From Candidatus Polarisedimenticolaceae bacterium (GTDB lineage Bacteria; Pseudomonadota; Gammaproteobacteria; Chromatiales; Chromatiaceae), in the NCBI GenBank assembly GCA_021648685.1, contig JAKISI010000019.1, positions 1 to 49,461 on the forward strand: DNA of 49,461 nucleotides, in the 5' to 3' direction. The position numbers and the translations under genes were made by a program. Within the stretch, counting starts at the first letter, position 1, and each line of letters begins with the position of its first letter. This document shows positions 34,954 to 49,412 of the stretch, piece by piece. The notes beneath the pieces were generated by a model. The model was not told where the DNA came from, ran no database searches, and saw only the letters and a list, made by a program, of their open reading frames with translations.

Positions 34954-36234
34954 TTATTGTGAATGTTCCTGAAGTGATTTCAGTAATATGTCTAACACTC
35001 GCTCCTCGGGAATGGCGATCTTTTTCTCTTTCATTGCCTGGGTCAGTCCTGGATCCCATTCGGCGCTGATGGGTCTGCCTTTTAGTTCCATTGTTGCCGT
35101 AACCGGGTGAGCCAGTGGGTTCTCTCGCAAGCTCACCTTGTAGGCCATCTCATCAAAATGCCATGGCCTGGCATCGAAGCGGTGCATAATGCCGTTGGCG
35201 ATGGTGATTCCCGGCCAGTCGAAATCACCATGATAGAGAAGTTTGGCTCCGGCTTCTTGTAGCTGGCTGAGTAGATGATTGACGGCGGCACGGGGTTGGC
35301 CGTAGGTGCAGATGAGCGGTGCGCAACTGCCCCCCAGAGAGTCGGCTGCTGCGGCCACTACGGCAGGGTTTTCGCAGATATGGATGGTGCAGCCCTCCAC
35401 CTGCCATTGCGGTGGGTCGCGCACCAGTTGGCGCAGCGTCAGCCATAGGGGTTCTCCCTGCTGACCGGCCTGATGAATGATGTTGTCGCTGAATGAGCTG
35501 CCTGATACTGGAAGATTAAGCACCAGAGCCGTGCTGGTAATTGCGCCGCCTACCAGGATTCCAGCACCGGCCCATAGTTCACGTTCACTCTCCTCTTGCT
35601 CTTTGTTGAGGCTTTCTGACAGAGCGGTTTGTTCGAGGGCTCTTTTGACCAGTGTCGCCACAGGGCGGCCGCTATCCAGGGCATGTGCATCCCCCAGGGT
35701 GTTGGCAGCAAGGGTGCTGAGTGTCTGCCCCTGGCCGGGGAGTTGGCGGATAACGGTCAGCGCCTGGTGCAGCAGGGTTGTTGCTTTGCCTGGGTCACCT
35801 TTAGCCAGGCGCTTGAGCAGACCCTCTTTGCGTAGCCTATCCAACCACGACTCAATGCCCCGTTGTTTGGCTTCTGCCGCTATGGCATCGAATACCATTT
35901 GCCATCGCTGTTGTGTGGCTGCTCTTTCGTTAGCCAGATCCCTTAACGGACCGCGCAGTGATTCTACTGCGGTACGCAGATCGGGAGCCAGCCCGGCTCT
36001 TTGGATGACCTCTTCCAGGTTGGCGATGGCGATGCGGATGGAGTTGCCGCTGCCGGGTGGCCGCCCCAGCAGTGAGGCGACCGCCTTGCGTTCGGCTAGT
36101 TCCGGATTGGGCAGGGTGAGTGTGGGGCTGTCGATGCCACGTTCGAAGCGGGTCTGTAGTCGATCCATCAACCTTGCCAGCTCCGGTTTGCCGAAGGTGC
36201 TTTTCAGGCGGGCTGGATCGACCTTGTAGGTCAC
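34954..36234 (-). CDS. jetD: Wadjet type II JetD (TIGR02679, DUF3323/DUF2399), toprim-like nuclease
   Basis: Nuclease subunit of the Wadjet anti-plasmid system. It cuts circular DNA after loop extrusion by the SMC-like complex. It has an N-terminal DUF3323 region and a C-terminal DUF2399 toprim-like domain with Glu in HICENPAVV and the D-x-D in HGDFDWPG (about E288, D337 and D339 from the GTG start). These are the metal-binding residues of topoisomerase VI-type toprim folds. I prefer GTG at 36234, which overlaps the jetC stop as GTGA with GGGAG just upstream, over the in-frame TTG at 36246. From the GTG it has 426 residues. Last gene of the operon; the next 213 bp (34741-34953) hold no gene. 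Confidence 0.9.
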   Translation of the reverse strand: MTYKVDPARLKSTFGKPELARLMDRLQTRFERGIDSPTLTLPNPELAERKAVASLLGRPPGSGNSIRIAIANLEEVIQRAGLAPDLRTAVESLRGPLRDLANERAATQQRWQMVFDAIAAEAKQRGIESWLDRLRKEGLLKRLAKGDPGKATTLLHQALTVIRQLPGQGQTLSTLAANTLGDAHALDSGRPVATLVKRALEQTALSESLNKEQEESERELWAGAGILVGGAITSTALVLNLPVSGSSFSDNIIHQAGQQGEPLWLTLRQLVRDPPQWQVEGCTIHICENPAVVAAAADSLGGSCAPLICTYGQPRAAVNHLLSQLQEAGAKLLYHGDFDWPGITIANGIMHRFDARPWHFDEMAYKVSLRENPLAHPVTATMELKGRPISAEWDPGLTQAMKEKKIAIPEERVLDILLKSLQEHSQ

Positions 36235-39200
36235 ATTGTCTCCCAAAGTGTTTGCTGAGCCTCAAGGTCAGGGATCGGCTCCTTCGCCCGTTGACGCTGT
36301 TTGCCATCCCACCACCAATGGCCGACGTGGACGGCATCCACCCCTTCACGGCGGGTCAGTTGAGCGATGGCAATGCCGGGGACTTCGGCGTAGCAGCTCC
36401 ACTCCCTTTCGCTGGTCATGACTACATCCATGTCAAACTGAGCCAGCAGTCCCAGGCTCTTGGCACGAGAGTCGTCATCAACACCGGCAAAGGCCTCATC
36501 CAACAGCACCAGACGGGGGGCATGAGAACCGGCACTGGTGTAGTGGCTGGAGGCGGCAGCAAACAGCGGGATGGTGACTACCAGTACCCGTTCACCACCG
36601 GAAGCGGGGCCATAGGCGGGACGCCATTCGCCATCTTGCCAGCGCTCAACCACAAAGCGATGCCAGTAGCGGTAATCGAGCGCCCGTGCCATCACCTCTT
36701 GCAGGGCGGTGCTCTCTTCGGCAATGCGGGCATCATCGATCTGTTTTTTGAGAAAGGTTCCCACGGCTTTGCGGTCTTCCTGCGACCACACTTCGGCACT
36801 TTGACGCAGCAGTTGATTGCGAGCCGCGCTGAGACCATCGGGTGCAGTGTGGTCAAGCCAGGTCTCACCGTCAGCCAGGGGCTTCCATTTAAGCCGCAGT
36901 TTCATGCCGGTGCTGGTGGGGCGGCACTCCAGTTCTTTGTTCATGGCGTTCACTGTCAGCTCTGCCTCCTGGATCAGGGTTTGCAGATGGCTGGCCAGTT
37001 CGTTGATGAGATGTTCTTCCAGCAGCGCCTGCTCCTTGGCATCCAACAACTCGCCCCGTTCGTGAATATTGTCGGCGATACGTTGAGCCAGCCGTTCCGT
37101 GTCACAACGCTGTGACTGAAAAACCACCCGCACGGCAATGAGGTCATCATTCTGCTCGGCGCTGGCCTCGTGGCCGTGGCGTGAGAGCGCACTTTGCAGT
37201 TCGCTGATACGTTCGTGCAATCGGTGTTGTTGGCTCTGCCAGGCTTTGTCGCTGTCATCCACCTGCTGGAGCTGTTTTTCCATGCTGCGGGCAAGGTGCA
37301 GGGCATAGTCGATGGGCCACTCGCCTGCTCTTGTCCCCTCAGTGTGATCCGGCAATGCGGCATCCAGTAGCCCCAACGTAGCGAACTGGGTCAGGCGGTT
37401 GACGGCCTCGCGCCGTGTCCGGTTATGTTCGAGCAGTGCTTCACTATGACTTGCCACGGCGGTGGCCGCGGCGGAAATCCTTTTGACCGTGCCAATCTGT
37501 GCCTGATGCAGCCGCTCGCTATCCCGCTCTAATTGTTGGATCTGCTTGCTTGCCTGCGCCAGTTTCTGCTCCACGATAGCGATGGCCTCGCCCAGGGTTT
37601 CACGCAGGGTGTCGCGATGTGTGGTTGCTTCACGGGCGCTACGTTGTGCCTTGCTGAGTCGACGGTTTTTCTCTTTCAGGCGGTCTCTCTCTTGTGCCAG
37701 CGCTTGCTGTGCCTGGTGGAGTGTATCAAGCAGACCCCAGTGGTGGCGCAGGCTGGGCCAGAAGCCCTGGCATCCGGCGTGGTAGTTGTTGAGCGTGGTG
37801 TCAAGTTCGGCCAATGCCTCCGTTTCTGTGGGCAGGTCAAGATCCTGGGCGGCCAGATCCCGTGCTTCGCACTGTTGCACCATCTCTGTTTGCGCCTCGG
37901 CGAGCCGTTGCGCTGCTGTTGTCACTTTTGCTTCTTGTGCCTGTTTTTGCGCGATCAGTGTCGTGACTTGCCGATGCGCTTGCCGCAACGCTTCGTCGTC
38001 GGGGGCTGCCTTCCACTCTTTATCGAGTTGAGTTTTCCGTTGGGCCAGCCGGTCAAGCTGTTGTTGTAGTGCTTTCAGAGCGGCTTCACTGCTGCTGATT
38101 TCGATGGCCAGTGTAGCCAGGCGTCGGTGCCGGGCAGATTCACGCGCACCATGGCCGATATATTCGGCCTCGGTTTTTTGCCAGCAACCTTGCAGTGTCC
38201 CCAGTTGCCACTGGCCGTTGCTGTCGATCCAGACGTTGTGATCTGATTGACCCCAGCCGATGCTGACCAGTAGCGCATTCAATACCGGGTCGCTGACGGC
38301 ATTGGCTTGAGAGTCATTACGATCCACGGCCGGTTTGAGAATCTGCGCAAGGTTCTGCTCAAGTGGCGAACCGGAGGTAAACAGCGTATCCCAGGTCTGG
38401 CTGTCCAGGAGCTGACCCTCTGGGAGCACCCATGCATCGAGCAATCCACTGGCTTCAAGCGCTGCCTCTACGGTTGCCCGCAGTTGTGGGTCTGTATCGC
38501 TGTGAAAATCGATCAGTTTCCACAGGGGCGCACCTGGGCGATGCTGGCGGCTCTCAGGAGATGAGGCGTCCCGGCGTGTGTAGGGGCAGGGCGGTTGTTG
38601 CTCTTCACCCGCCTCTAAACGCCTCTTCTCCTGGCACAGTTCGTCCAGTGTGTACTCTTGCTGCTCTTTTTTCTGTGTTGTCTCTGCCTTCTCATCCGCC
38701 AGACCATGGCTGGCTATCTCAAAGGCGCTGGTTAATGCCTGGATCGCGGGGTTGTTGCCTTCAAGCGTGATCGTCCAGGTTCGCAGTGATTCTGCCACCG
38801 TATCGGGGTCGCTGAGTGGCAGTTCGCTCAGTTCCCGGCAGTAGCAGAGAAACGCGCTGACCAGTGCTTGCCCCCTCTGTTCGGTGGTTATTTCCGCCTC
38901 CAACTGCTCTTCAGTCAGCCGTTCCAGTTGGTCACTTGCCACCTGCCACTGTTCCTGAAAGTGTCGATGGTGGCTGAGTGCTTGATCCACGACCCGGTTA
39001 AGATGCTTGATATGGTTGAGCTGTTCCGAACGTCGACGATAGAGCTGCATAATGGCATTCTCCGTGGTGTTGATGCGGAGGTCGTCGCTGCCGACCGCTT
39101 CACCGCCGTTGGGGAGTTGCAACGGTGTTGTCAAGCGTTGGTGCTCACCTTCTATCCCCAGTGCTATCGCTAGCTCCGCTAGCAGGGTGTTGCGGTTTTT

Positions 39201-40379
39201 GATCTCTGTCGTGGAGCGTTTAACCTGGCTCCGGTATTGGTCGGTCTGTTGTTGTCGCTGTTCTACTTCATGAGCAATATTCCGTGACTCATTTTCTATT
39301 GTGGCCAGCTCGGCCTCTTTTTCTCCAGCCCTCTCTTCTGCCTGACGCAGGGTATTGGCATCACGCATCTCAGGGCTTTGTTGCAGTGTTCGTTCACGCG
39401 CTCTGGCTTTTTGCAGCGTGGTTTTTGTCTCTTCGATCTGCGCCAGAATATGAGACTCCTCTTCCCTGGCGGTGTGGGCTGAGGCGTTGGCCTGCTTTAG
39501 ATCACTGCTAATTTTTTCGTGACGGCTTTGGGCGCTACGCACCACAGCGGCGCGGCGGCGACCGGCGACACGGGCATACTGGCGGTAGTGACGACGGAAC
39601 TCATCCACTGCCTGCCCTGTCTGCCGCAGCCCTTCCAGCTCTTGTCGCTCTGCCTCCAGGTTACGAAAGGCATCGGCGACATCGCTGAGAATTCCCGGAT
39701 CAATCGGTGGCAACGCTTCAGTCAGTGCCTTGGAGAGGGCTTTTTCGTCAGGCCGTTTGGATAGCTGGGGTTGGCGCAGCTGGATCAACAGGCTGATCAG
39801 CGCATCATAGCGCTCTGGCCCAAGTTGGAAGAGTTTATCGTCTACCACCTGGCGATAGCGAGAGGCCTGCTCGATGACGGCGTGTTCGCCCAGAGCCTCT
39901 CTGAGGCGCTCTTTGCTGAGAGTGCGTTTGTTGTTGTCCAGCAGGGAGAAATCCTGGGCAACACGCTGGTCAGTAGTGAAAAACCAGGTGGTCAATGGCC
40001 GCCCTTTGACCGCCTTCATGGCGCAGCCGATGGTAAATATTTCTGTTGAGCCATCCTGGCGCAGACGACCGAACTCCAGCCAACTGTAGCCGGTGCGCTC
40101 GTTATAACGGTTACCCATGAGCAGGTTCCACTCCATCCGCTTTTGGGCATCACCGTCCGGCTCGACCCGGCTGGGCATTGCCCGGCCGTCCAGCAAAAAC
40201 GGCAGGGTGAGCGCCAAGACCTTGGATTTACCGGTGCCGTTATTGCCCCGCAGCAGCAGGCGGCCGTCGCGAAACCAGAACTCCTGATAATCGTAATAGA
40301 AGATATCGACCAACCCGGCTCGTAGCGGTTGCCAGCGTTCTTTGTTGGGCTTGGGAAGATGAATTTCCGGGTGGTTCAT
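36231..40379 (-). CDS. jetC: Wadjet type II JetC (TIGR02680), SMC/MukB-like ATPase
   Basis: Loop-extruding motor of the Wadjet complex. The 1382-residue protein has Walker A GNNGTGKS at residues 45-52. Very long heptad-rich coiled coils with a central hinge-like globular part follow. The ABC signature SGGE is at 1260 and Walker B LVLLDEAF at about 1290-1297, with the D-loop GVDDD. This head-coil-hinge-coil-head plan is that of SMC, MukB and Rad50 proteins. Its ATG overlaps a remnant TGA of an older jetB end (see 40376-40396). It lies only 19 bp after the AlbA_2 gene, so it now depends on transcription through the inserted module. Confidence 0.93.
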   Translation of the reverse strand: MNHPEIHLPKPNKERWQPLRAGLVDIFYYDYQEFWFRDGRLLLRGNNGTGKSKVLALTLPFLLDGRAMPSRVEPDGDAQKRMEWNLLMGNRYNERTGYSWLEFGRLRQDGSTEIFTIGCAMKAVKGRPLTTWFFTTDQRVAQDFSLLDNNKRTLSKERLREALGEHAVIEQASRYRQVVDDKLFQLGPERYDALISLLIQLRQPQLSKRPDEKALSKALTEALPPIDPGILSDVADAFRNLEAERQELEGLRQTGQAVDEFRRHYRQYARVAGRRRAAVVRSAQSRHEKISSDLKQANASAHTAREEESHILAQIEETKTTLQKARARERTLQQSPEMRDANTLRQAEERAGEKEAELATIENESRNIAHEVEQRQQQTDQYRSQVKRSTTEIKNRNTLLAELAIALGIEGEHQRLTTPLQLPNGGEAVGSDDLRINTTENAIMQLYRRRSEQLNHIKHLNRVVDQALSHHRHFQEQWQVASDQLERLTEEQLEAEITTEQRGQALVSAFLCYCRELSELPLSDPDTVAESLRTWTITLEGNNPAIQALTSAFEIASHGLADEKAETTQKKEQQEYTLDELCQEKRRLEAGEEQQPPCPYTRRDASSPESRQHRPGAPLWKLIDFHSDTDPQLRATVEAALEASGLLDAWVLPEGQLLDSQTWDTLFTSGSPLEQNLAQILKPAVDRNDSQANAVSDPVLNALLVSIGWGQSDHNVWIDSNGQWQLGTLQGCWQKTEAEYIGHGARESARHRRLATLAIEISSSEAALKALQQQLDRLAQRKTQLDKEWKAAPDDEALRQAHRQVTTLIAQKQAQEAKVTTAAQRLAEAQTEMVQQCEARDLAAQDLDLPTETEALAELDTTLNNYHAGCQGFWPSLRHHWGLLDTLHQAQQALAQERDRLKEKNRRLSKAQRSAREATTHRDTLRETLGEAIAIVEQKLAQASKQIQQLERDSERLHQAQIGTVKRISAAATAVASHSEALLEHNRTRREAVNRLTQFATLGLLDAALPDHTEGTRAGEWPIDYALHLARSMEKQLQQVDDSDKAWQSQQHRLHERISELQSALSRHGHEASAEQNDDLIAVRVVFQSQRCDTERLAQRIADNIHERGELLDAKEQALLEEHLINELASHLQTLIQEAELTVNAMNKELECRPTSTGMKLRLKWKPLADGETWLDHTAPDGLSAARNQLLRQSAEVWSQEDRKAVGTFLKKQIDDARIAEESTALQEVMARALDYRYWHRFVVERWQDGEWRPAYGPASGGERVLVVTIPLFAAASSHYTSAGSHAPRLVLLDEAFAGVDDDSRAKSLGLLAQFDMDVVMTSEREWSCYAEVPGIAIAQLTRREGVDAVHVGHWWWDGKQRQRAKEPIPDLEAQQTLWETM

Positions 40380-40396
40380 GCTTGCTTCTGCTTGCC
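40376..40396 (-). pseudogene. Remnant copy of the jetB C-terminus overlapping the jetC start
   Basis: Read on the minus strand, these 21 bases give GKQKQA and a TGA. The intact jetB ends GKQKQS and TGA (44701-44721). The two stretches match at 16 of 21 bases. Four codons (G, K, Q and K-Q) differ only at third positions, and the last codon is Ala against Ser. The TGA overlaps the jetC ATG as ATGA, the normal junction of tightly packed jet genes. The stretch is short, so chance cannot be excluded. Confidence 0.6.
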
Positions 40397-40398
40397 GA

Positions 40399-41631
40399 TT
40401 ACCGTTGTTCCCCTCTAAGCAGCACTGTTTTTACATAGTCTTCAGTTGCTTCAAAGAGAGGTTCAACATGATTCATGCGTTTCATTAAAGGGACAACTTT
40501 GGTTCGAATCCCCATCCCCCTGGAATCGACATAACCATAATCACGAAGCACTTCCATGATAATGGCGTTTCTGCGTGAGCGTTGCCCGGCAATCATTTTT
40601 TCAATGGACATGGAATTTGGCAGAGCACCAGGGCTGATCACTTCGAGCCTGTTCGAGTAGATGCCGATCTCTATATCGACAAAGCGTGTCCAGTCGCGAT
40701 GAGCCAGTGCGTTGAGCACAACTTCTCGTACGGCATCAATAGGGTAATGCCACTTGGTTTCTCTTCTGAAGTGCTCATCAATTTTAGCGGCTTCTGCGGA
40801 AATAAAAGGTGTGATTTTCTCAATAAATCGTTCGATGACTCCACTATCAATCAAGTTCTTTCCAGAATCGGTAACATCCCAGCGCCCCACCAACGGGCCA
40901 TCAAGGATCTCATCCAAGAGCGCCTGATACTCTTTGTCTTCGCCATCAAAGGCAAAAACTCGCAAGCCAGATTGTTTTAAATAGCGACGTGGGTTTTTTC
41001 CAAACAGAACCAATCCTGCAATCGAACAGTAAACATTATCCTCTGCCTCTGACAGGAAACCCAAACCTAAAAGCCTCGATTCCCATTCTATGGGTGTTTG
41101 AGGGACTTCAGGGTCTGCAATAATATCTTTCAAGTAGTTTTGCAGCCGTGCTTCATCAAGGCAACTTATGTCTGTTCGGGGTACTGGCATGACTTCGGTA
41201 TGCAGCATACCGCCCAATTCAAACAGCCGCATTTGTTGTTCGCGTGTGGCCAGCCGTGATGTTGATCCGACGCGGATATAGATTTTCTCCGCACCACCTT
41301 CTCTAGCCACATAAGGTTTAGATATTCCCTGGGGGAAGGTAATAATTGCGACGGTTTTGTTGTCGTCAAATTTAATCTCTTCATAGAATGGTAGAATCAG
41401 GGGATGAACTTTGGCCTGGATGGCATTCATCACCCACTCTTCGGCATTGCTTCGCTGAAGGCCGGAGATTGTTCCATCATCTTCCACACCCAGTATGACT
41501 CTGCCACCCTTAAAGTTGGCCATAGCCACAATTACTTTGGCTAATTGCTCGGGACGAATGTCATCTCGCTTGAACTCAACGCCAGAGCTTTCTCCGTTTG
41601 CAATAAGTTCTAACAGTTCAGTTTTTAGCAT
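40399..41631 (-). CDS. AlbA_2 (Schlafen-type) domain protein with GHKL ATPase domain
   Basis: Member of the COG2865 group of putative DNA/RNA-binding ATPases. The 410-residue protein has an N-terminal AlbA_2 domain (ESSGVEFKRDD, then KVIVAMANFKGGRVILGVEDDG). The C-terminal GHKL-type part has an N-box EVVLNALAHRD and the region NRLEVISPGALP. The usual C-terminal winged helix looks absent or reduced. AlbA_2 proteins occur in many defence and toxin-antitoxin contexts, but the function here is unknown. It lies 15 bp after the PHP-ATPase gene and 19 bp before jetC, in the same operon. Confidence 0.85.
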   Translation of the reverse strand: MLKTELLELIANGESSGVEFKRDDIRPEQLAKVIVAMANFKGGRVILGVEDDGTISGLQRSNAEEWVMNAIQAKVHPLILPFYEEIKFDDNKTVAIITFPQGISKPYVAREGGAEKIYIRVGSTSRLATREQQMRLFELGGMLHTEVMPVPRTDISCLDEARLQNYLKDIIADPEVPQTPIEWESRLLGLGFLSEAEDNVYCSIAGLVLFGKNPRRYLKQSGLRVFAFDGEDKEYQALLDEILDGPLVGRWDVTDSGKNLIDSGVIERFIEKITPFISAEAAKIDEHFRRETKWHYPIDAVREVVLNALAHRDWTRFVDIEIGIYSNRLEVISPGALPNSMSIEKMIAGQRSRRNAIIMEVLRDYGYVDSRGMGIRTKVVPLMKRMNHVEPLFEATEDYVKTVLLRGEQR

Positions 41632-41646
41632 GATTCACCTTTAATT

Positions 41647-44361
41647 TCAAAACCCATACTTTGCCTTGCGCTGGTTGAAAGCGGTTTTACCACCTTCAAG
41701 TATATTTGCGGCGTTATCTCTAACCTGCGGTACATCAATCGCACCTTGCGATTCCGCTGGCATGTAAGACTGTCCTTCATGTGCCTCAAAAACCCCAATC
41801 CACTCGGCATCGCCAAAGACAGGGATGTTGGCATTATGTGTCGCGAAGATGAATTGGCGGGCTATTTTTGCTGAGCGTAACTCGGCCACAATTCGGTCGG
41901 CAATAAAGGCGTTGTCCAGATTGTCTTCTGGTTGATCCATAATGAGAGGGTCTCTATTTTGTAATAATAAAAGGTGCAGAATAGCGGTACATTGTTGTCC
42001 AGTAGATAGCTTATTCAGTAATCGAAAATTTTCTGCGCCCTCATGTGCAATATTTAATTCGATACGAATGACATCGGGTAGTTCTAATTCCTCTAACTGT
42101 AGAACTTGGAGCTTTGTTAACTTAGTCAGTGCATTTGCAACAGTTGGTGTAATTCCGGGTAATAAGCTAAGTTCCAGATCAGATAGTAAGCCTTCTGCTT
42201 GTGATTGCCGGATAATCTCCGCAAGTTTAACCGGAGAAAAATCATCTTGATCATTTATCCATGCAAGACGTTTTTCTCCAACACCGTCTAAATGACATTG
42301 CATCAGAAATTCAGTTACCGGTGTTCGGTCAGATTCCGGGAGGACAGTGAGTTTTAGCTTCCCTTTGAGTTTTTTATTTAAGCTTTTGAGGGATCGTTCA
42401 AATTGAGAGGAGCGTGCAGACCGGTGTTTGGACAGTTCAGACAGGAGGTTTTTGCGTTTCTGCTCCAGTTCTTCAACAATGGTGCGTTGGGTCTTGGCTA
42501 TTGTTTGCCTCGGTTTGATTTTCTCGATCTCTTTCAGCAGAGCTTGAAACTCAAACCCAATTTCACGGCCGCTCTTTCCTTCACTAGACGGCAGCCCCTT
42601 AAAGGTTGTCTCTAACTTATCTTCCTCACTATTGATACCAATGTTCAGTGATTCCAAGAGTAAGTCAATCGCTGTTTTTGACGCGGTAAATTTCTCTTGC
42701 CACTGGGTTAGAATGGTTTCTGTATCACGCTTTAGCCTATCGAGTTCGATTCTTATTTTTTCTAATTCTTCGGCATGAGGAAGATTTTTTAACGCGGTGT
42801 CACTGAGAAAAATCGTGTCGGGTAAGACCTCCTGAATAGCAGAAAAGGCCGCTTTCAGATGCGCTAACTCTTCATCAGAAATCCGTTTTGATAATCGTTT
42901 TTCTGTTTCCAGCAAAGGGATGATTTTTAGCTTATCTTCAAGTCCAAGGGATTTGAACTGATTGACCTGCTCTTCCAGTTTGGGCAGACGTGACAGCTGA
43001 TCTTCTGTGGAAGCGATATTGCTTAATGCATCTGCGAGTTTAACTCTGTTTTCAGCCAAGGCCTCCAGAATATTCCTGATTTTTACCTCGCTGCTGCTCT
43101 GCCCTGATTCCAGAAAACGAGCCAGCAACTTTCGTTGAGCATTCGCATCTTGAGCAATTTCATAAATTTCATTTTGTCCGTACAGCTCGATTTCAGGCAG
43201 CAGGTCTGCGGGCGTGAAAGGGGAAATAGTGCCACTTTCATCTTTTATGCTGGCACTTTCACCATAGCGCCGGGCAATCGTGAACTCCTTCCCATTCATT
43301 TTGGATGATCGAATTTTCAGCTCGATACGGGCTTTGGATCTGCCCAAATTTTCCTTGATAATCCCGTGATGCTGCTTTGAGGCGTTTTTGCTGATGGGTT
43401 CCAGCTCAAGGGCATAACGGATGCATTCCAGCAAGGTTGACTTGCCGGTGCCACGGCCACCGATGACAGCGTTCAGGTGTTCTGAAAATTCGATAGAGAG
43501 ACCATCCAGATAACCACCCATTACCTGTAGCGTTTCGATTCTGGAATAGTGCTTTTCTATCACGTCACTGTTTAACCGCACCCGTGACTCCGGGTCTTGA
43601 AAAGCCAATTTAAAAGAGTCAAAACCGGGATTTGTCATCTTGATAAGGCAAGATGCTTTGGGGTTTTCCAAGTCTTGTGGTCTAGCCACATCTTTGGCAT
43701 TAATAATGGCTACAGGCAGTTCCCGCTGATACGCGGGTGTTTTGTTTAACAGGATTTGCCGATAACCGCTGCCTGTTTCGTTTTTAAGATCATCCAGTGC
43801 TCCAGGTATCTGGGCGGCTTTGAGTAGTGGGTTTTGCCATACGTGATTTAATTTTCTAGATAAAACTCCATTGTCGTCTACGCAATGAGCTGCATAAGCA
43901 AAACCATTGAAGTCTTCTTCGACCTTCTTCAACAGTTGCTCTGCACTTAGACGAGATGGGCGGACACCATCTTCAGGGTTGAGCAACTCAAGACTACCCA
44001 AATAACGATTTAATTTCGTTATTGTCGTATTTTCTGGAAACAGACACACGAAATGGGCTTTTTCGCTGGAGGCGATCTCAAACCCTGGGAAAACAATAAT
44101 GCCATTTGCATTCATTAAGGTGCGAATGGCATCTACTTCGTCGACATTGCCATGATTTGCCACACCGATGACCTTAATGTCATTTTCCTTGGCGATTTTC
44201 AAGAGTTCCTGATTATATTGCTCTTCCGTCAAGCCATGATCTTCACCTCGATAGGCGATGTAGCTGGCCGGATTTACCTGCAAGGCACATTTCCAGAATC
44301 TTGCTTTGGTGTATTGCTTTGGCATATTTATCTCTGTGCAAAGTTCCTTTGGGTCTTTCAC
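41647..44361 (-). CDS. TrlF-like PHP-domain ABC-type ATPase
   Basis: The 904-residue protein joins an N-terminal PHP phosphoesterase-like domain (about 20-260) to an SMC/Rad50-like ATPase. The ATPase has Walker A GGRGTGKS (301-308), a coiled coil (about 420-680), signature LSTGQQ (785-790), Walker B LIMDQPED (806-813) and an ATHNANIP switch. In the PHP part, VANHGNVDE, VFPGFEI and AAHCVDD are recognisable. The first H-x-H metal motif is replaced by Q28-V-N30, so metal binding may be reduced or lost. It starts with GTG overlapping the regulator stop (GTGA); an ATG at 44325 is an alternative. Such ATPases are common in defence islands. Confidence 0.85.
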   Translation of the reverse strand: MKDPKELCTEINMPKQYTKARFWKCALQVNPASYIAYRGEDHGLTEEQYNQELLKIAKENDIKVIGVANHGNVDEVDAIRTLMNANGIIVFPGFEIASSEKAHFVCLFPENTTITKLNRYLGSLELLNPEDGVRPSRLSAEQLLKKVEEDFNGFAYAAHCVDDNGVLSRKLNHVWQNPLLKAAQIPGALDDLKNETGSGYRQILLNKTPAYQRELPVAIINAKDVARPQDLENPKASCLIKMTNPGFDSFKLAFQDPESRVRLNSDVIEKHYSRIETLQVMGGYLDGLSIEFSEHLNAVIGGRGTGKSTLLECIRYALELEPISKNASKQHHGIIKENLGRSKARIELKIRSSKMNGKEFTIARRYGESASIKDESGTISPFTPADLLPEIELYGQNEIYEIAQDANAQRKLLARFLESGQSSSEVKIRNILEALAENRVKLADALSNIASTEDQLSRLPKLEEQVNQFKSLGLEDKLKIIPLLETEKRLSKRISDEELAHLKAAFSAIQEVLPDTIFLSDTALKNLPHAEELEKIRIELDRLKRDTETILTQWQEKFTASKTAIDLLLESLNIGINSEEDKLETTFKGLPSSEGKSGREIGFEFQALLKEIEKIKPRQTIAKTQRTIVEELEQKRKNLLSELSKHRSARSSQFERSLKSLNKKLKGKLKLTVLPESDRTPVTEFLMQCHLDGVGEKRLAWINDQDDFSPVKLAEIIRQSQAEGLLSDLELSLLPGITPTVANALTKLTKLQVLQLEELELPDVIRIELNIAHEGAENFRLLNKLSTGQQCTAILHLLLLQNRDPLIMDQPEDNLDNAFIADRIVAELRSAKIARQFIFATHNANIPVFGDAEWIGVFEAHEGQSYMPAESQGAIDVPQVRDNAANILEGGKTAFNQRKAKYGF

Positions 44362-44597
44362 CCGGCTACCCCTTCATCTTTTGGAGGCAACTTTAATTTT
44401 TTTTGTTTCTCCATTTTTTTACAGAAGGCATCGAACTGCTTTCGGGCCAGTTTGAATGGAGTCGTTTTGGCATTCTCCCAACGGTTTATGGTTGCAAAGC
44501 TGACGCCTAACTCATGAGCAAGCTCTTCCTGAGTTAGCCCCAGTTGTTTGCGAGCATCTTTTACCCGTTCCGAAAAAACGCTTGGATTCGTGATCAT
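44358..44597 (-). CDS. XRE-family helix-turn-helix regulator
   Basis: Small DNA-binding protein of 79 residues. Residues 8-60 form a Cro/CI-type domain (ERVKDARKQLGLTQEELAH, then VSFATINRWENAKTTP). A short lysine-rich tail follows. It is the first gene of the inserted module and overlaps the PHP-ATPase gene by 4 bp. It probably regulates its own promoter in the 103-bp gap upstream, and through it jetC and jetD (inference). Confidence 0.9.
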   Translation of the reverse strand: MITNPSVFSERVKDARKQLGLTQEELAHELGVSFATINRWENAKTTPFKLARKQFDAFCKKMEKQKKLKLPPKDEGVAG

Positions 44598-44631
44598 GGC
44601 ACTGTGTTAGTTTGGTGTATTGAGTCTGAAA

Positions 44632-44660
44632 AGTATAACAGGTGATATGGCAGGTGTGAG
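44632..44660 (-). promoter_or_regulatory. Candidate internal promoter before the regulator gene
   Basis: On the minus strand CTCACA (44660-44655) and TATACT (44637-44632) are separated by 17 bp. The -10 is good and the -35 moderate. The gap 44598-44700 is the only one longer than 20 bp in the whole jet cluster, so a promoter for the module, and now for jetCD, would be expected here. Confidence 0.45.
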
Positions 44661-44700
44661 GTTCGTGCGGCATATATTTTATGATCCATATTAAGGCGAT

Positions 44701-45924
44701 TCACGACTGTTTCTGTTTGCCAACGATTGTGGTTTCACCCAAAACATGACGGCCAATGGCGGGCAGTGCCTGAATGCCATTATCAGAGATCTCCACCAGA
44801 CGTAACGCACTCAGTCGTTGCAATGCGTTATTGCACAGCTCCACTTCGGCTCCGCTTTCGCGCACCGCTTTTTTCCAGTAGCCGCTGTATTCGTCAATCC
44901 AGCAGCGCATCTGTTGGTGTAGTGTTGCCAGGGGCTGTGGTGTGCGATGGCTTGCCAGGTAGTCCGCCAGCAGCAGGGTGGCATGGCCTTCGGTGCCTTC
45001 GCTGGGCAGGCGCTCATCGCTCAGGTCACCCGTGGGGTCGACCATTGCCATCCCTTCGGCTCGTACTTCGTCGATGAGCCCGGTCGCCTCGCGGATACGA
45101 CGGGCGATGTGGGGGCGCTGGCTGCTGAGGTAGGCAAGCTCCTCATCACTGAGTTCATCCCAATAGAGTAGCGGGTCGTCCAGCAGGCGCGCAGTCAGGT
45201 GACGGCGCAGTGCTGTGTTGCGTGCATCGGGCGTGTCAGGCACAAAGGTTTCGGTGACGGCGGCAATGCGTTGTGACAATTCTGGTGCTGAACCCAGCTC
45301 GCTATCCACCAGCGATGGGCCACGGCTCACCACCAGCAGTGCCGAGAGCAGGCGGCGGTTGACATCGTAAAGTACATCCTGCTGAGCATGGATAAAGGAG
45401 CTTTCATCTCCGGTCACGCGGCTGAGGATGCCAAGTTCAAGCAGCAGCCGAACCACCGCCACCAGGTCGCGCCGTTCACTGCGTTCCTCCAGGGCGAATT
45501 TTAGTCCTACTGCCTTGAGATCGGGGTCTGCCGCCCCCTGGCGGATGGCCTCACCGAGCCGACCAAGGGTGATCTGTGGCTCGCCCCGCTCAAGTTCAGC
45601 CAATGCCAGGCAGGTCAGCGTGTAGCGGCGGCGGCTGAAGGGGGGTGAAGCGGCCGGTTTGCTTAACTTGGCGGGGCGGGTGTTGTCGCTATGGTCGGCG
45701 ACACGCTTGCCCAGGCGGGCGAAGTCATCCTCCACCGTCAGCACCCAGCCGGTCTCACGACTGAGCCATTGACGCAGTGTATCGGCGTGTTTGCGTACCA
45801 GTGGATAGGCGGGATCAGTGTGGGGCAGCATGGGGCGAACGAGCAAGGTACGCAACGCCCGTTGTTGTTCATCCTGGCGGTTGCGTTCGAGGACATCAAT
45901 AAGATGACTGCCTGCTGCACTCAT
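44701..45924 (-). CDS. jetB: Wadjet type II JetB (TIGR02678, DUF2398)
   Basis: Kite-like (MukE-type) accessory subunit that bridges the kleisin to the SMC-like motor. The 407-residue protein shows the TIGR02678 pattern, including RRRYTLTCLALAELERGE, DVNRRLLSALLVVSRGPS and the C-terminal winged-helix-like part. Its ATG overlaps the jetA stop as ATGA. Instead of running into jetC, it is followed by the HTH-PHP-AlbA module. Its last residues are duplicated just before jetC. Confidence 0.88.
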   Translation of the reverse strand: MSAAGSHLIDVLERNRQDEQQRALRTLLVRPMLPHTDPAYPLVRKHADTLRQWLSRETGWVLTVEDDFARLGKRVADHSDNTRPAKLSKPAASPPFSRRRYTLTCLALAELERGEPQITLGRLGEAIRQGAADPDLKAVGLKFALEERSERRDLVAVVRLLLELGILSRVTGDESSFIHAQQDVLYDVNRRLLSALLVVSRGPSLVDSELGSAPELSQRIAAVTETFVPDTPDARNTALRRHLTARLLDDPLLYWDELSDEELAYLSSQRPHIARRIREATGLIDEVRAEGMAMVDPTGDLSDERLPSEGTEGHATLLLADYLASHRTPQPLATLHQQMRCWIDEYSGYWKKAVRESGAEVELCNNALQRLSALRLVEISDNGIQALPAIGRHVLGETTIVGKQKQS

Positions 45925-47474
45925 GAGTGGCCTTCCAGATCGGTGATGCGAATATGATAATCGCGCCCGGAGAAGATGCCGATGGGGGTGTGAATTCTGG
46001 CCTGCTGATGCCTGGCCAGTGGCCTCATTTCGATCTCTATAGCGCCGTCACCGGTTGTGGTGTAGATCGCTGCTTCCGTATCTTCAGCGGCGGCCAGGGC
46101 TTCGCCTAAAAGTTGCAAAAAATAACGGAAGCTCCCTTCATCCAGTTCGCCGATGGCGCTGAGTGTAGTGGTTTCGCCAGTGGCCAGATGATGGCGAGCC
46201 TGGCGAGCCTCTTCACTCTCTCTGGCAATCTGTTTTGCCAGTTGTGCCTTCTCTTTACTCCGGTTGCGGATTTGAGCGGCAGCGCCGCGACGGGCGTAAC
46301 TGCCGGTGGCACGCAGGCGGGGGTTGATGGTGAGTGGTGGCGCACTCCACCATGAGATTTGAGGGGAGACAGGTCTCTGTTCTCGTGCGGCCAGGGTATC
46401 TTCATCAATACTGAGATGGCGTGCCGGTGTCAGGCCAAATACGGCACGCCACAGGCGGTGAGCCTCGCCATCGTCTTCGCACTGCATGAACCAGCCTGCC
46501 AAGGTGCGAAAATCGGCAGAGCGGTCGCTGCGCCCCAGCCTCTTTTCGTTCAGGCGTACCACTGCCTCCAGCAGCAGCAAGATGGCGTGTCGGGCGCGGG
46601 ATTGGAGCACAGAGGCTTGGGATGGATGGCTCTGGGTGCCGATAAACCAGGTCTGGAGCCCCTGCCAATGGCCGCGCCAGTGTTGCAGGGATTGCTCCAA
46701 TTGCTGTGTGTGAGACGGCTTGTCGGGCGTGTTTGCAACCTGCGTCAGGTCGGGTGCCAGGTCTTCCGCTTCACGGGTGGCTACCAGAATCAGAAGTTTT
46801 TCGATGGGGCTGTCCAGGCTGCGTATGAGCTGGGCAATGTCGGGGGAGAGTACCGCCAGGTCACCGATAAAACGCTTGAGGTAGTCAATGACCTTCTCTT
46901 TGTAGGCAAGAAAGGCATCACGATCAATGCTGCGCAGATCGAGGGCGCGTCCCAAACCCGCCATAAATGCCTGGGCGTTGTCGGCCAGATCCTCAAACAC
47001 CCGGCTGAGGTCACGCAACAGGGCATGAACCCGTCCCGCATCAAGCGCATCATCAGGTTGGGTCTCGTGGCAGAGTTGTTCGATGGAGGCGAGGATGTCA
47101 CGGATATCCCGTAGTGCCACCGCCTGCAAGGCACCATGACGGCCCAGCAGTTCATCGAAGGTAGCCAATGCGGCTTCGGCGGCCTCCCCCTGACGGGAGA
47201 GCTGGTAGAGATGACGGGCGCGGTAGAAATCCTCTACCGTGGTAACGCGGCCGGTGTCGGGTTGTGCCAACAGGTTTCCCCAGGCGACCAGCTGTTCAAG
47301 TGCCGCAGGTACCTCTTCCGGTGACCAGCCACCATCAGGGTTCAGCCGCTCAATCACCTCCTCTGGACGCAGATGGACGATGAAGTGGCTCTTTGCAGCG
47401 GTGAATGCTTGCATCACCACCCGATAAAGAGCGGTCTTTTCTGCGGTAACGTAATTGAATGCTGTTGATGACAT
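45921..47474 (-). CDS. jetA: Wadjet type II JetA (TIGR02677, DUF2397)
   Basis: Kleisin-like (MukF-type) subunit of the Wadjet complex. The 517-residue, mostly helical protein begins with FNYVTAEKTALYRVVMQAF and IVHLRPEEV, the typical start of TIGR02677 proteins. DISWWSAPPL-like text (QISWWSAPPL) lies near residue 380. The C-terminal basic region SYARRGAAAQIRNRSKEKA is also characteristic. First gene of the operon. I see no convincing promoter upstream; TAGGAT around 47515 on the minus strand is a weak -10 candidate. Confidence 0.88.
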   Translation of the reverse strand: MSSTAFNYVTAEKTALYRVVMQAFTAAKSHFIVHLRPEEVIERLNPDGGWSPEEVPAALEQLVAWGNLLAQPDTGRVTTVEDFYRARHLYQLSRQGEAAEAALATFDELLGRHGALQAVALRDIRDILASIEQLCHETQPDDALDAGRVHALLRDLSRVFEDLADNAQAFMAGLGRALDLRSIDRDAFLAYKEKVIDYLKRFIGDLAVLSPDIAQLIRSLDSPIEKLLILVATREAEDLAPDLTQVANTPDKPSHTQQLEQSLQHWRGHWQGLQTWFIGTQSHPSQASVLQSRARHAILLLLEAVVRLNEKRLGRSDRSADFRTLAGWFMQCEDDGEAHRLWRAVFGLTPARHLSIDEDTLAAREQRPVSPQISWWSAPPLTINPRLRATGSYARRGAAAQIRNRSKEKAQLAKQIARESEEARQARHHLATGETTTLSAIGELDEGSFRYFLQLLGEALAAAEDTEAAIYTTTGDGAIEIEMRPLARHQQARIHTPIGIFSGRDYHIRITDLEGHS

Positions 47475-48011: not shown

Positions 48012-48036
48012 TGAATGACCAGCCATGGAAGGCTGG

Positions 48037-48329
48037 GCCGGGTCGTACTGCCAGGGATGGCGTGCCCCGCCTGTTCTGTTTGTCATCTCAATATATATAT
48101 AGCCCTTTGCTTTTTTATAGTCTTGGCGGGACTAAAGTCCCGCTTCCTCCCCCTTTTTGCCCCACTTTCCCTGAAGTGAGATTTCACTCCACTCACCTTC
48201 TCGGAAGTGGGACTTTAGTCCCGTCAAAATTTGGATTTTATACTCATAGCGTTCATGTAAGTAAAGCTCGCTTGTGTCCGTTTTTCAATCGATGGAACCA
48301 GGTGTTAATAGTGAGAGGAGTAAACCCGG
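48037..48329 (+). repeat. Dispersed repeat, copy 1, with large hairpin
   Basis: This ~293-bp unit runs from GCCGGGTCGT to GTAAACCCGG and recurs at 48363-48714. Inside, GGCGGGACTAAAGTCCCGC (about 48127-48145) is a perfect short palindrome. Together with the inverted segment near 48209-48230 it can form a hairpin of about 110 bp with 25-bp arms. Open frames here are produced by the repeat and are not genes. Confidence 0.85.
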
Positions 48330-48362
48330 ATTATGCTGCGCTTCATCCAGGTTACTTGCTGA

Positions 48363-48714
48363 GCCGGGTCGTGCGGCCAGAGATGGTGCACCCCACCTGT
48401 TCTGCTTATCGTCTCAATATGCATTCCCACGCAGGAGCGTGGGGACGAGAGCATGCACGGGTTATTTATTTGGCGGGTTATATAGCCCTTTGCTTTTTTA
48501 TAGCCTTGGCGGGACTAAAGTCCCGCTTCCTCCCCCTTTTTGCCCCACTTTCCCTGAAGTGAGACTTCACTCCACTCACCCTCTCGGAAGTGGAACTTTA
48601 GTCCCGCCAAAATTTGGATTTTATACTCATAGCGTTCATGTAAGTAAAGCTCGCTTGTGTCCGTTTTTCAATCGATGGAACCAGATGTTAATAGTGAGAG
48701 GGGAGTAAACCCGG
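48363..48714 (+). repeat. Dispersed repeat, copy 2, with an extra 58-bp block
   Basis: It matches copy 1 almost base for base except for an additional block at about 48421-48478. The block contains ATTCCCACGC, a 4-nt loop and GCGTGGGGA, a REP-like hairpin of a type widespread in gammaproteobacteria. The same GGGACTAAAGTCCC palindrome occurs at about 48509-48524. The two copies are in direct orientation with 33 bp between them. The gap to 48844 holds no recognisable gene. Confidence 0.85.
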
Positions 48715-49102: not shown

Positions 49103-49111
49103 CGCTATACG

Positions 49112-49336: not shown

Positions 49337-49412
49337 TGGTGGGCCGTGAAGGATTCGAACCTTCGACCAAGGGATTAAGAGTCCCCTGCTCTACCAACTG
49401 AGCTAACGGCCC
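49337..49412 (-). tRNA. tRNA-Lys (anticodon CTT)
   Basis: On the minus strand the 76-nt sequence folds as a standard tRNA. The acceptor stem GGGCCGT pairs with ACGGCCC, and the D-arm TAGCTCAGTTGGTAGAGC is normal. The anticodon loop CTCTTAA gives anticodon CTT, and the T-arm GGTTCGAATCC is normal. CCA is encoded. Downstream on the same strand (49313-49328) a 6-bp stem with TTAC loop may be a weak terminator. The intervening 49269-49312 has two GTCACGCAA direct repeats and no gene. Confidence 0.95.

What the first reader, a model, noticed from the sequence alone, without database searches (positions are those of the whole stretch)
36231..47474. Type II Wadjet operon split by an HTH / PHP-ATPase / AlbA_2 module
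Seen: jetA and jetB (45921-47474 and 44701-45924) are followed not by jetC but by three genes on the same strand (44597 down to 40399). jetC and jetD resume 19 bp later. Established: type II Wadjet loci (TIGR02677, TIGR02678, TIGR02680, TIGR02679) normally run jetA-B-C-D without gaps. Inference: the module is nested in the operon. Its own regulator could control jetC/jetD separately from jetA/jetB, or couple a second defence to Wadjet. I do not know of a described system with this order.
Basis: partly seen in the sequence, partly recalled or inferred. Interest (0 to 1): 0.85.

Follow-up and report, generated by a model that had tools for sequence, protein, structure and literature searches.

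The report
Defence cassette nested inside Wadjet operon
A bacterial anti-plasmid operon (type II Wadjet) carries, wedged between its second and third genes, a portable second defence unit that looks like an ATP-driven sensor plus a Schlafen-type RNA-cutting enzyme, and relatives carry other defence systems or nothing at the same spot, which suggests that this junction is a recurrent docking site for extra immunity.

Summary
jetA-jetB are followed by HTH, PHP/SMC-like ATPase and AlbA_2 genes, then intact jetC-jetD, all on one strand. The ATPase is NCBIfam TrlF (573 bits, cut-off 350); its partner is a Schlafen/AlbA_2 plus GHKL protein. It is not a one-off: jetB-[HTH-trlF-albA2]-jetC is seen whole in 3 loci and in part in 2 cut by contig ends; 2 close relatives have jetB and jetC overlapping by 4 bp and no trlF found. 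trlF and albA2 are under purifying selection (dN/dS 0.07-0.12). Elsewhere the trlF-albA2 pair sits inside type I RM, BREX and Hma operons. In 3 of 3 measurable family relatives with more distant Wadjets, the same junction carries other cargo (Zorya II, GmrSD-like genes), against 0 of 39 actinomycete junctions. Best reading: a nested backup defence module with its own promoter, not a Wadjet subunit. RNase activity, trigger and coupling are inferred. The HTH gene is broken in 2 of 5 loci, so a regulatory purpose is weaker.

The parts
45921..47474 (-). jetA (type II Wadjet kleisin, TIGR02677 / DUF2397)
44701..45924 (-). jetB (type II Wadjet KITE subunit, TIGR02678 / DUF2398)
44632..44660 (-). promoter-like site of the nested module (CTCACA-17-TATACT, extended -10 TG), inside a 25-nt block conserved in 5 of 5 loci
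44358..44597 (-). XRE/HTH_3 regulator, 79 aa; stop overlaps the trlF GTG start by 4 bp
41647..44361 (-). trlF: PHP-like domain plus SMC/RecF-type ABC ATPase (NF045780)
40399..41631 (-). Schlafen AlbA_2 domain plus GHKL (HATPase_c_4), putative RNase effector
40370..40400 (-). imperfect second copy of the 3' end of jetB just before and over the jetC start (probable insertion scar)
   Evidence: 3 of 5000 shuffles reach the score
36231..40379 (-). jetC (type II Wadjet SMC, TIGR02680)
34954..36246 (-). jetD (type II Wadjet nuclease, TIGR02679)

Best explanation
A self-contained second defence cassette (XRE regulator, TrlF ATPase, Schlafen-GHKL effector) was inserted at the 4-bp overlapping jetB|jetC junction of a type II Wadjet operon and has been kept there by selection. 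Shown: position, intact frames, empty-site relatives, conserved promoter block, purifying selection, and the same trlF-albA2 pair inside RM, BREX and Hma operons. Inferred: TrlF senses infection or DNA damage through its SMC-like ATPase and licenses the Schlafen domain to cut tRNA or other RNA, giving an abortive response when a phage gets past Wadjet (which destroys plasmids) or past another primary system. jetC-jetD are then transcribed from the module's promoter and/or by read-through from jetA-jetB. The module is a backup layer that travels with Wadjet, not a part of the DNA-extruding machine.
For: Order and families. Whole order in 3 loci (window, L005, L008), part in L002 and in G370 = L003+L045. 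Empty junction with 4-bp overlap in L006 and L007, and no TrlF at E <= 1e-15 in G373 or G374. dN/dS: TrlF 0.09-0.12 and AlbA2 0.07-0.12, like jetB 0.10-0.12 and jetC 0.13-0.18. Wadjet-borne TrlFs form one clade, 100/100. Pair embedded in type I RM (L012, L022, L032), BREX (L016, L026, L030, L041) and Hma/DUF1156 operons (L028, L034, L035). E14, E19 and D51 of the Schlafen domain align with acidic residues of Schlafen 8 and SLFN14; GHKL and ABC ATPase motifs invariant in 16 of 16 and 17 of 17 rows. Promoter core 22 of 25 nt invariant in 4 loci against 33 of 85 for the rest.
Against: No functional data. The module is dispensable for Wadjet (absent in G373 and G374). The closest non-Wadjet TrlF (L033, 69%) sits with albA2 between ftsK and lolA, a housekeeping cluster, so a defence operon is not obligatory. 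In 8 of the 20 TrlFs over cut-off in the class sample no albA2 was detected nearby. Several embedded pairs are distant relatives (TrlF 18-22% for L022, L026, L028, L041; trlF of L041 lies in two frames). The PHP HxH motif is lost in this subfamily, so TrlF may not be an enzyme there. L008 has a broken HTH, and G370 lacks most of trlF in its assembly. Structure models were useless.
Confidence: 0.6

Rival explanations
1. Regulatory switch: the XRE protein and its promoter exist to uncouple jetC-jetD from jetA-jetB, so the motor SMC and nuclease are made only after de-repression.
For: XRE gene and conserved extended -10 promoter upstream; insertion destroys the 4-bp jetB/jetC overlap; the 19-bp spacer before jetC leaves no intergenic room for its own promoter; in L008 albA2 and jetC overlap by 4 bp.
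Against: HTH has a stop at codon 11 and a large deletion in L008, and an ATA in place of the start plus a frameshift in L003. It does not explain conserved trlF and albA2. Read-through from jetA is not excluded. The promoter scan finds no more sites in the region than shuffles do (7 against 6.7).
Confidence: 0.15
2. Passive hot spot: the jetB|jetC junction of these operons merely tolerates insertions carried by recombination or RAYT-associated elements; cargo is unrelated to Wadjet function.
For: Different cargo at the same junction in family relatives: Zorya II (G555), GmrSD-like HEC-05 (G397), GmrSD_N plus C5 methylase (G556), and after jetB on contigs that lack jetC type I RM and IS66-like genes (G552). 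Border duplications of jetB and jetC fragments. Some cargo is on the opposite strand, and some (a sulfatase-like and a 647-aa gene) is not recognisable defence.
Against: Each measured gap holds at least one gene with a strong PADLOC match. Trio genes keep dN/dS near 0.1 and co-orientation. 0 of 39 actinomycete junctions carry an insert.
Confidence: 0.2
3. Physical integration: TrlF (itself SMC/RecF-like) and the Schlafen protein act with JetABCD, for example as sensor or extra effector of the extrusion complex.
For: Long co-residence; divergence of trio and jets between loci is of the same order.
Against: The pair occurs away from Wadjet in many contexts; empty Wadjet operons persist. Wadjet-specific extensions or interfaces were not tested.
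Confidence: 0.05

Closest known systems
TrlF-AlbA_2 pair inside type I RM (L012 hsdM-hsdS-[trlF-albA2]-hsdR; L032; more distant L022)
   Same: Same two adjacent genes (54% TrlF and 73% AlbA2 identity for L012) embedded between genes of a primary defence operon
   Different: No XRE gene annotated or seen between; host operon is RM, with DNA methylation as self-mark
Schlafen RNase fused to minimal histidine kinase and wHTH linked with BREX core loci (PMC12839542, passages read; at least 1017 taxa reported there)
   Same: Same Schlafen + GHKL architecture; proposed there as backup suicidal effector
   Different: The main text of that paper holds neither the word Wadjet nor PHP
PrrC nested in the EcoPrrI type I RM locus (PMC12707154, passages read)
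   Same: Effector gene nested in a primary defence operon; RNA-cutting guardian logic
   Different: PrrC is a different anticodon nuclease (its unrelatedness is recalled, not tested); sensing of host-system inhibition is not shown here
Ppl / Spaf_1101 PHP-ATPases
   Same: PHP plus SMC-like ATPase layout (hits under cut-off)
   Different: Scores far below their cut-offs (175.7 of 1000; 227 of 475 bits); Schlafen partner not tested
Type II Wadjet with uninterrupted jetB-jetC (L006, L007, L042, L043)
   Same: Same genes and order as far as seen
   Different: jetB and jetC overlap by 4 bp; no module

Membership tests
Wadjet type II (TIGR02677/78/80/79) | all four genes over curated cut-off, one strand, order A-B-C-D | tested here: met
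   order kept but interrupted between B and C
Wadjet type II | plasmid clearance by loop extrusion and JetD cleavage | not testable with these tools
   needs experiment
Wadjet type II | catalytic residues of JetC ATPase and JetD nuclease | not tested
   only family scores were looked at
TrlF family (NF045780) | whole-protein score over 350 bits | tested here: met
   573.2 bits, model 3-944 of 944
PHP phosphoesterase | complete metal site including motif I HxH | tested here: not met
   CALQVN replaces HxH in 13 of 17 aligned TrlFs including the window; H58, E83, H91, H147, D212 kept in 17 of 17 (motif names recalled)
Schlafen/AlbA_2 nuclease | SLFN_AlbA_2 domain over gathering score and acidic triad | tested here: met
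   PF04326 74.2 bits, cut-off 25.3; E14, E19, D51 of the window protein align with Schlafen 8 and SLFN14 (catalytic role of these residues recalled)
Schlafen/AlbA_2 nuclease | RNA cleavage | not testable with these tools
   needs assay
PrrC-type guardian of a host defence system | activated when the host system is inhibited | not testable with these tools
   only the nested position is shared
PrrC-type guardian of a host defence system | gene nested inside the host operon | tested here: met

The most novel reading that the evidence does not exclude
The jetB|jetC junction of gammaproteobacterial type II Wadjet operons is a dedicated docking slot for second defence systems (TrlF-Schlafen, Zorya II, GmrSD-like genes, perhaps type I RM), and the docked system is functionally slaved to Wadjet, e.g. 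fires when Wadjet is inhibited, a Wadjet counterpart of the PrrC guardian.
Probability: 0.2. Interest if true: 0.82.

Novelty: new variant of a known kind. Interest (0 to 1): 0.6.

Why it matters
Nested effectors are known in type I RM (PrrC) and reported for BREX, systems that mark self by DNA modification. Here the same portable sensor-effector pair is nested in a system that judges DNA by size and topology instead, so its trigger is unlikely to be the loss of a methyl mark. Three whole occupied loci, two empty relatives and several alternative cargoes at one junction give a natural set for testing whether nested modules guard their host system or merely ride along.

Tried and rejected
Structure prediction of AlbA2 and TrlF gave mean pLDDT 35 and 32 from 3-row alignments; discarded, no fold search run. 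A viral-contig scan with TrlF found no relative. Plasmid searches with JetB and JetC gave 8 and 22 records; where both genes are matched, the listed coordinates leave no multi-gene gap between them (judged by eye from partial matches, coordinates only).

First reading of L029 as HTH-trlF-albA2 was wrong: its 99-aa ORF is an HsdS C-terminal relic (PADLOC Specificity_I 38 bits; no Pfam hit; BLASTP with L012 HsdS only E 0.073). G704:C14 seemed to have a 1249-bp B|C gap, but the jetB frame ends at L056:2499 and the open jetC frame reaches back to L056:2612, 112 bp away, so I count it as no insert. Two C|D gaps (G745, G735) reflect a C-A-B-D order. G371 was left out of the occupied and empty counts: contig ends in L004 and L044 carry sequencing-adapter sequence (recognised from memory); no TrlF was found in it. 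The jetB-tail scar is not significant in L005 (787 of 5000) or L008 (1503 of 5000). The jetB tree was mostly unresolved. A link between PHP loss and having albA2 was considered and rejected: solo TrlFs L014 and L018 also lack HxH.

Papers. Searches: 'TrlF' with phage 0 papers, with ATPase 3 unrelated titles; Schlafen with Wadjet 0; in the listings I saw no title or abstract start describing genes nested in Wadjet, and the listed papers were not read in full. Searches served to find the papers below. Read as passages only: PMC12839542, PMC12707154, PMC12458937 (nothing on PHP, Schlafen or Wadjet), PMC10586767 (12 of 28 places), PMC9122589 (on the BREX regulator BrxR; nothing on nested PHP or AlbA genes). 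Taboada 2025 (bioRxiv) and Gao 2020 are not held: seen only as reference entries.

Rows left out: of 39 actinomycete genomes with a JetB match 32 were measured (31, and G376 for B|C); the 7 with weak matches (G594, G620, G670, G693, G724, G763, G772) were not. Short stray fragments of jet genes in G397, G456, G552, G553, G556, G654 and G764 were left out, and split matches of one gene were merged by hand.
Full report
WHAT IS THERE. The window holds a complete type II Wadjet operon on the minus strand, with three genes between jetB and jetC. All four jet genes pass their NCBIfam cut-offs and are open. The three inserted genes are a 79-aa XRE/HTH_3 protein, a 904-aa protein of the TrlF family (573 bits, cut-off 350) and a 410-aa protein with an SLFN_AlbA_2 domain and a GHKL HATPase_c_4 domain. 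The HTH stop overlaps the trlF GTG start by 4 bp, trlF and albA2 are 15 bp apart, and jetC starts 19 bp after albA2.

IS IT A ONE-OFF? No. One genome-contig scan with JetB, which reaches close relatives only, gave 10 loci. The order jetB-HTH-trlF-albA2-jetC is whole in L005 (Thiotrichaceae MAG) and L008 as well as the window, though the HTH gene of L008 is broken. L002 (99% JetB) shows jetA-jetB-HTH-trlF to the contig end. Genome G370 shows jetA-jetB-broken HTH on one contig (L003) and the last 38 codons of trlF, albA2, jetC, jetD on another (L045). L006 and L007 have jetB directly before jetC, and L010 and L011 (actinobacteria) have no insert either. The genomes of L006 and L007 have no TrlF at E <= 1e-15. 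L004/L044 (G371) are cut at contig ends by adapter-like sequence and uninformative; L009 ends inside jetB and belongs to the same MAG as L007. So of the 8 genomes with Wadjets of the window's clade (G000, G369-G375), 3 show the whole arrangement, 2 show part, 2 are empty and 1 is undetermined. The tool's order-level sets put G372 with G373, and G370, G371, G374 with G375; none of these is among the 8 hits of the 210 genomes of the window's order. The occupied operon thus seems to span at least three such groups at 84-89% JetB identity, which suggests horizontal transfer.

INSERTION FOOTPRINT. In L006, L007, L042 and L043 the jetB stop and the jetC start overlap by 4 bp (ATGA or GTGA). In the window, the 31 nt around the jetC start are an imperfect copy of the jetB 3' end (3 of 5000 shuffles reach the score); G370 is weaker (49 of 5000), L005 and L008 not significant. 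L005 carries a further insert before jetC: a 63-codon jetC fragment, a ribbon-helix-helix gene (RHH_1) and a PIN-like toxin gene (my reading; PADLOC gave no hit). In the jetC tree occupied and empty loci interleave (L005 with L006, 92/88; L008 and L007 in one group with L045 and L044, 100/99), whereas the Wadjet-borne TrlFs form one clade (100/100). One early gain with two losses, or transfer by recombination in the flanks, both fit.

SELECTION. Nei-Gojobori dN/dS among occupied loci is 0.09-0.12 for TrlF, 0.07-0.12 for AlbA2, 0.10-0.12 for jetB and 0.13-0.18 for jetC. Synonymous distances of trio and jets are of the same order (0.50-0.84 for trlF/albA2, 0.45-1.13 for jetB/jetC), so the module is not a recent passenger. 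The HTH is the weak part: in L008 it has a stop at codon 11 and has lost most of its second half; in L003 it has ATA in place of the start and a frameshift; in L005 it is intact at 76 codons. Its promoter block is kept: 22 of 25 nt invariant in four independent loci against 33 of 85 for the rest of the spacer. The consensus scan alone is no evidence (7 sites found, 6.7 expected).

THE MODULE ELSEWHERE. In 369 genomes of the class, 20 carry TrlF over cut-off; I fetched the surroundings of the other 19. An AlbA_2 gene lies next to trlF, or (L034) a small ORF away, in 12 of 20; in the other 8 none was detected with my references, and not every neighbour was scanned with Pfam. Of these 12, 10 have a restriction, methylation or defence gene beside them and 8 have parts of one system on both sides: Wadjet (window), BREX pglX-[pair]-pglZ (L026, L030, L041), DUF499-[pair]-DUF1156 (L028), HmaA-like helicase-[pair]-DUF1156 (L035), methylase-[pair]-methylase (L038), type I RM (L032, its HsdS match weak); L034 (Hma) and L029 (hsdS relic) are one-sided. 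The two exceptions are a Tn7-like element (L031) and a pair between ftsK and lolA (L033). TrlFs of L026, L028 and L041 are distant from the window's (18-22%); those of L030, L032, L033 and L029 are 50-69%. Plasmids show the same: type I RM in L012 and L022, BREX in L016; of 11 plasmid regions opened (of 1127 matching records), by their annotation 4 have the pair (L012, L016, L020, L022) and 7 a solo trlF.

OTHER CARGO AT THE SAME JUNCTION. In the window's family, Wadjets with 51-54% identical JetB were found in 7 other genomes (G398 by a short fragment). Where jetB and jetC share a contig, the gap is 6.8 kb (G397), 6.9 kb (G556, a single-contig genome) and 7.2 kb (G555): 3 of 3 measurable; the other two gammaproteobacteria measured, G085 and G136, have none. 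G555 holds ZorA2 (798 bits), ZorB2 (337) and ZorE2 (492); G397 a GmrSD_N/HEC-05 gene (691) and a Transposase_31 gene; G556 a GmrSD_N gene, a C5 methylase, RAYT-like genes (my reading) and a jetB fragment. The gaps also hold genes that are not recognisable defence (a sulfatase-like and a 647-aa gene). In G552 type I RM genes follow jetB on one contig, and IS66-like genes and a second jetB 3' part on another, but its jetC is on a third contig. G398, G456 and G553 have jetB and jetC on different contigs and cannot be measured; G553 has a PIN gene between jetA and jetB. In 32 of the 39 actinomycete genomes with JetB, gaps over 600 bp were 0 of 40 at A|B, 1 of 39 at B|C (no insert) and 2 of 27 at C|D, both from a C-A-B-D order.

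HOW IT MAY WORK. TrlF keeps the ABC ATPase motifs (Walker A, signature, Walker B, H-loop invariant in 17 of 17 rows; motif names recalled) but lacks the first PHP motif; 13 of 17 rows share CALQVN there, so it is a conserved variant, not decay. The AlbA2 protein keeps E14, E19 and D51, which line up with acidic residues of Schlafen 8 and SLFN14, and its GHKL boxes are invariant in 16 of 16 rows; E19 is Q in L020 and L022. From these I infer an ATP-dependent sensor and an RNase effector. PMC12839542 (passages) proposes the same Schlafen-GHKL type as backup suicidal effector of BREX; PMC12707154 (passages) describes PrrC nested in type I RM as guardian. PMC10586767 (passages) describes Wadjet as anti-plasmid and says that most work so far is on type I. 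A phage-directed backup beside an anti-plasmid machine is a sensible division of labour, but none of it is shown.

VERDICT. Real, recurrent and under selection: a known kind of nested module in a host operon for which my searches (open-licence papers only) showed no description. The wider point, a defence-cargo slot at jetB|jetC, rests on three measured relatives plus the window's clade and needs a larger count.

Noticed in passing
L051 4729-8739 (G555): A complete Zorya type II set (ZorA2, ZorB2, ZorE2) lies between jetB and jetC of another type II Wadjet, same strand.
   Followed up: partly
L005 15552-16820: Second insert inside an occupied locus: a jetC 63-codon fragment, a RhuM-like fragment (my reading), a ribbon-helix-helix and a PIN-like gene before the full jetC.
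   Followed up: partly
L033 6052-14408: The trlF-albA2 pair sits between ftsK and lolA-rarA, inside a housekeeping gene cluster.
   Followed up: partly
L053 10-6304 and L048 8037-8222: Second 3' parts of jetB lie next to RAYT-like genes (my reading), hinting at a recombination route for cargo turnover.
   Followed up: no
window 48032-48701: Two copies of a 223-nt repeat (97%) with inverted GGCGGGACTAAAGTCCCGC arms upstream of jetA, plus a 25-nt inverted repeat at 49109/49247 near the tRNA-Lys gene at 49337-49412.
   Followed up: no
L025 2976-13308: A distant TrlF (22-23% identity) lies between a type III restriction subunit and SbcD/SbcC-like genes.
   Followed up: no
G745:C68 and G735:C663: Two actinobacterial Wadjets have gene order C-A-B-D instead of A-B-C-D.
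   Followed up: no
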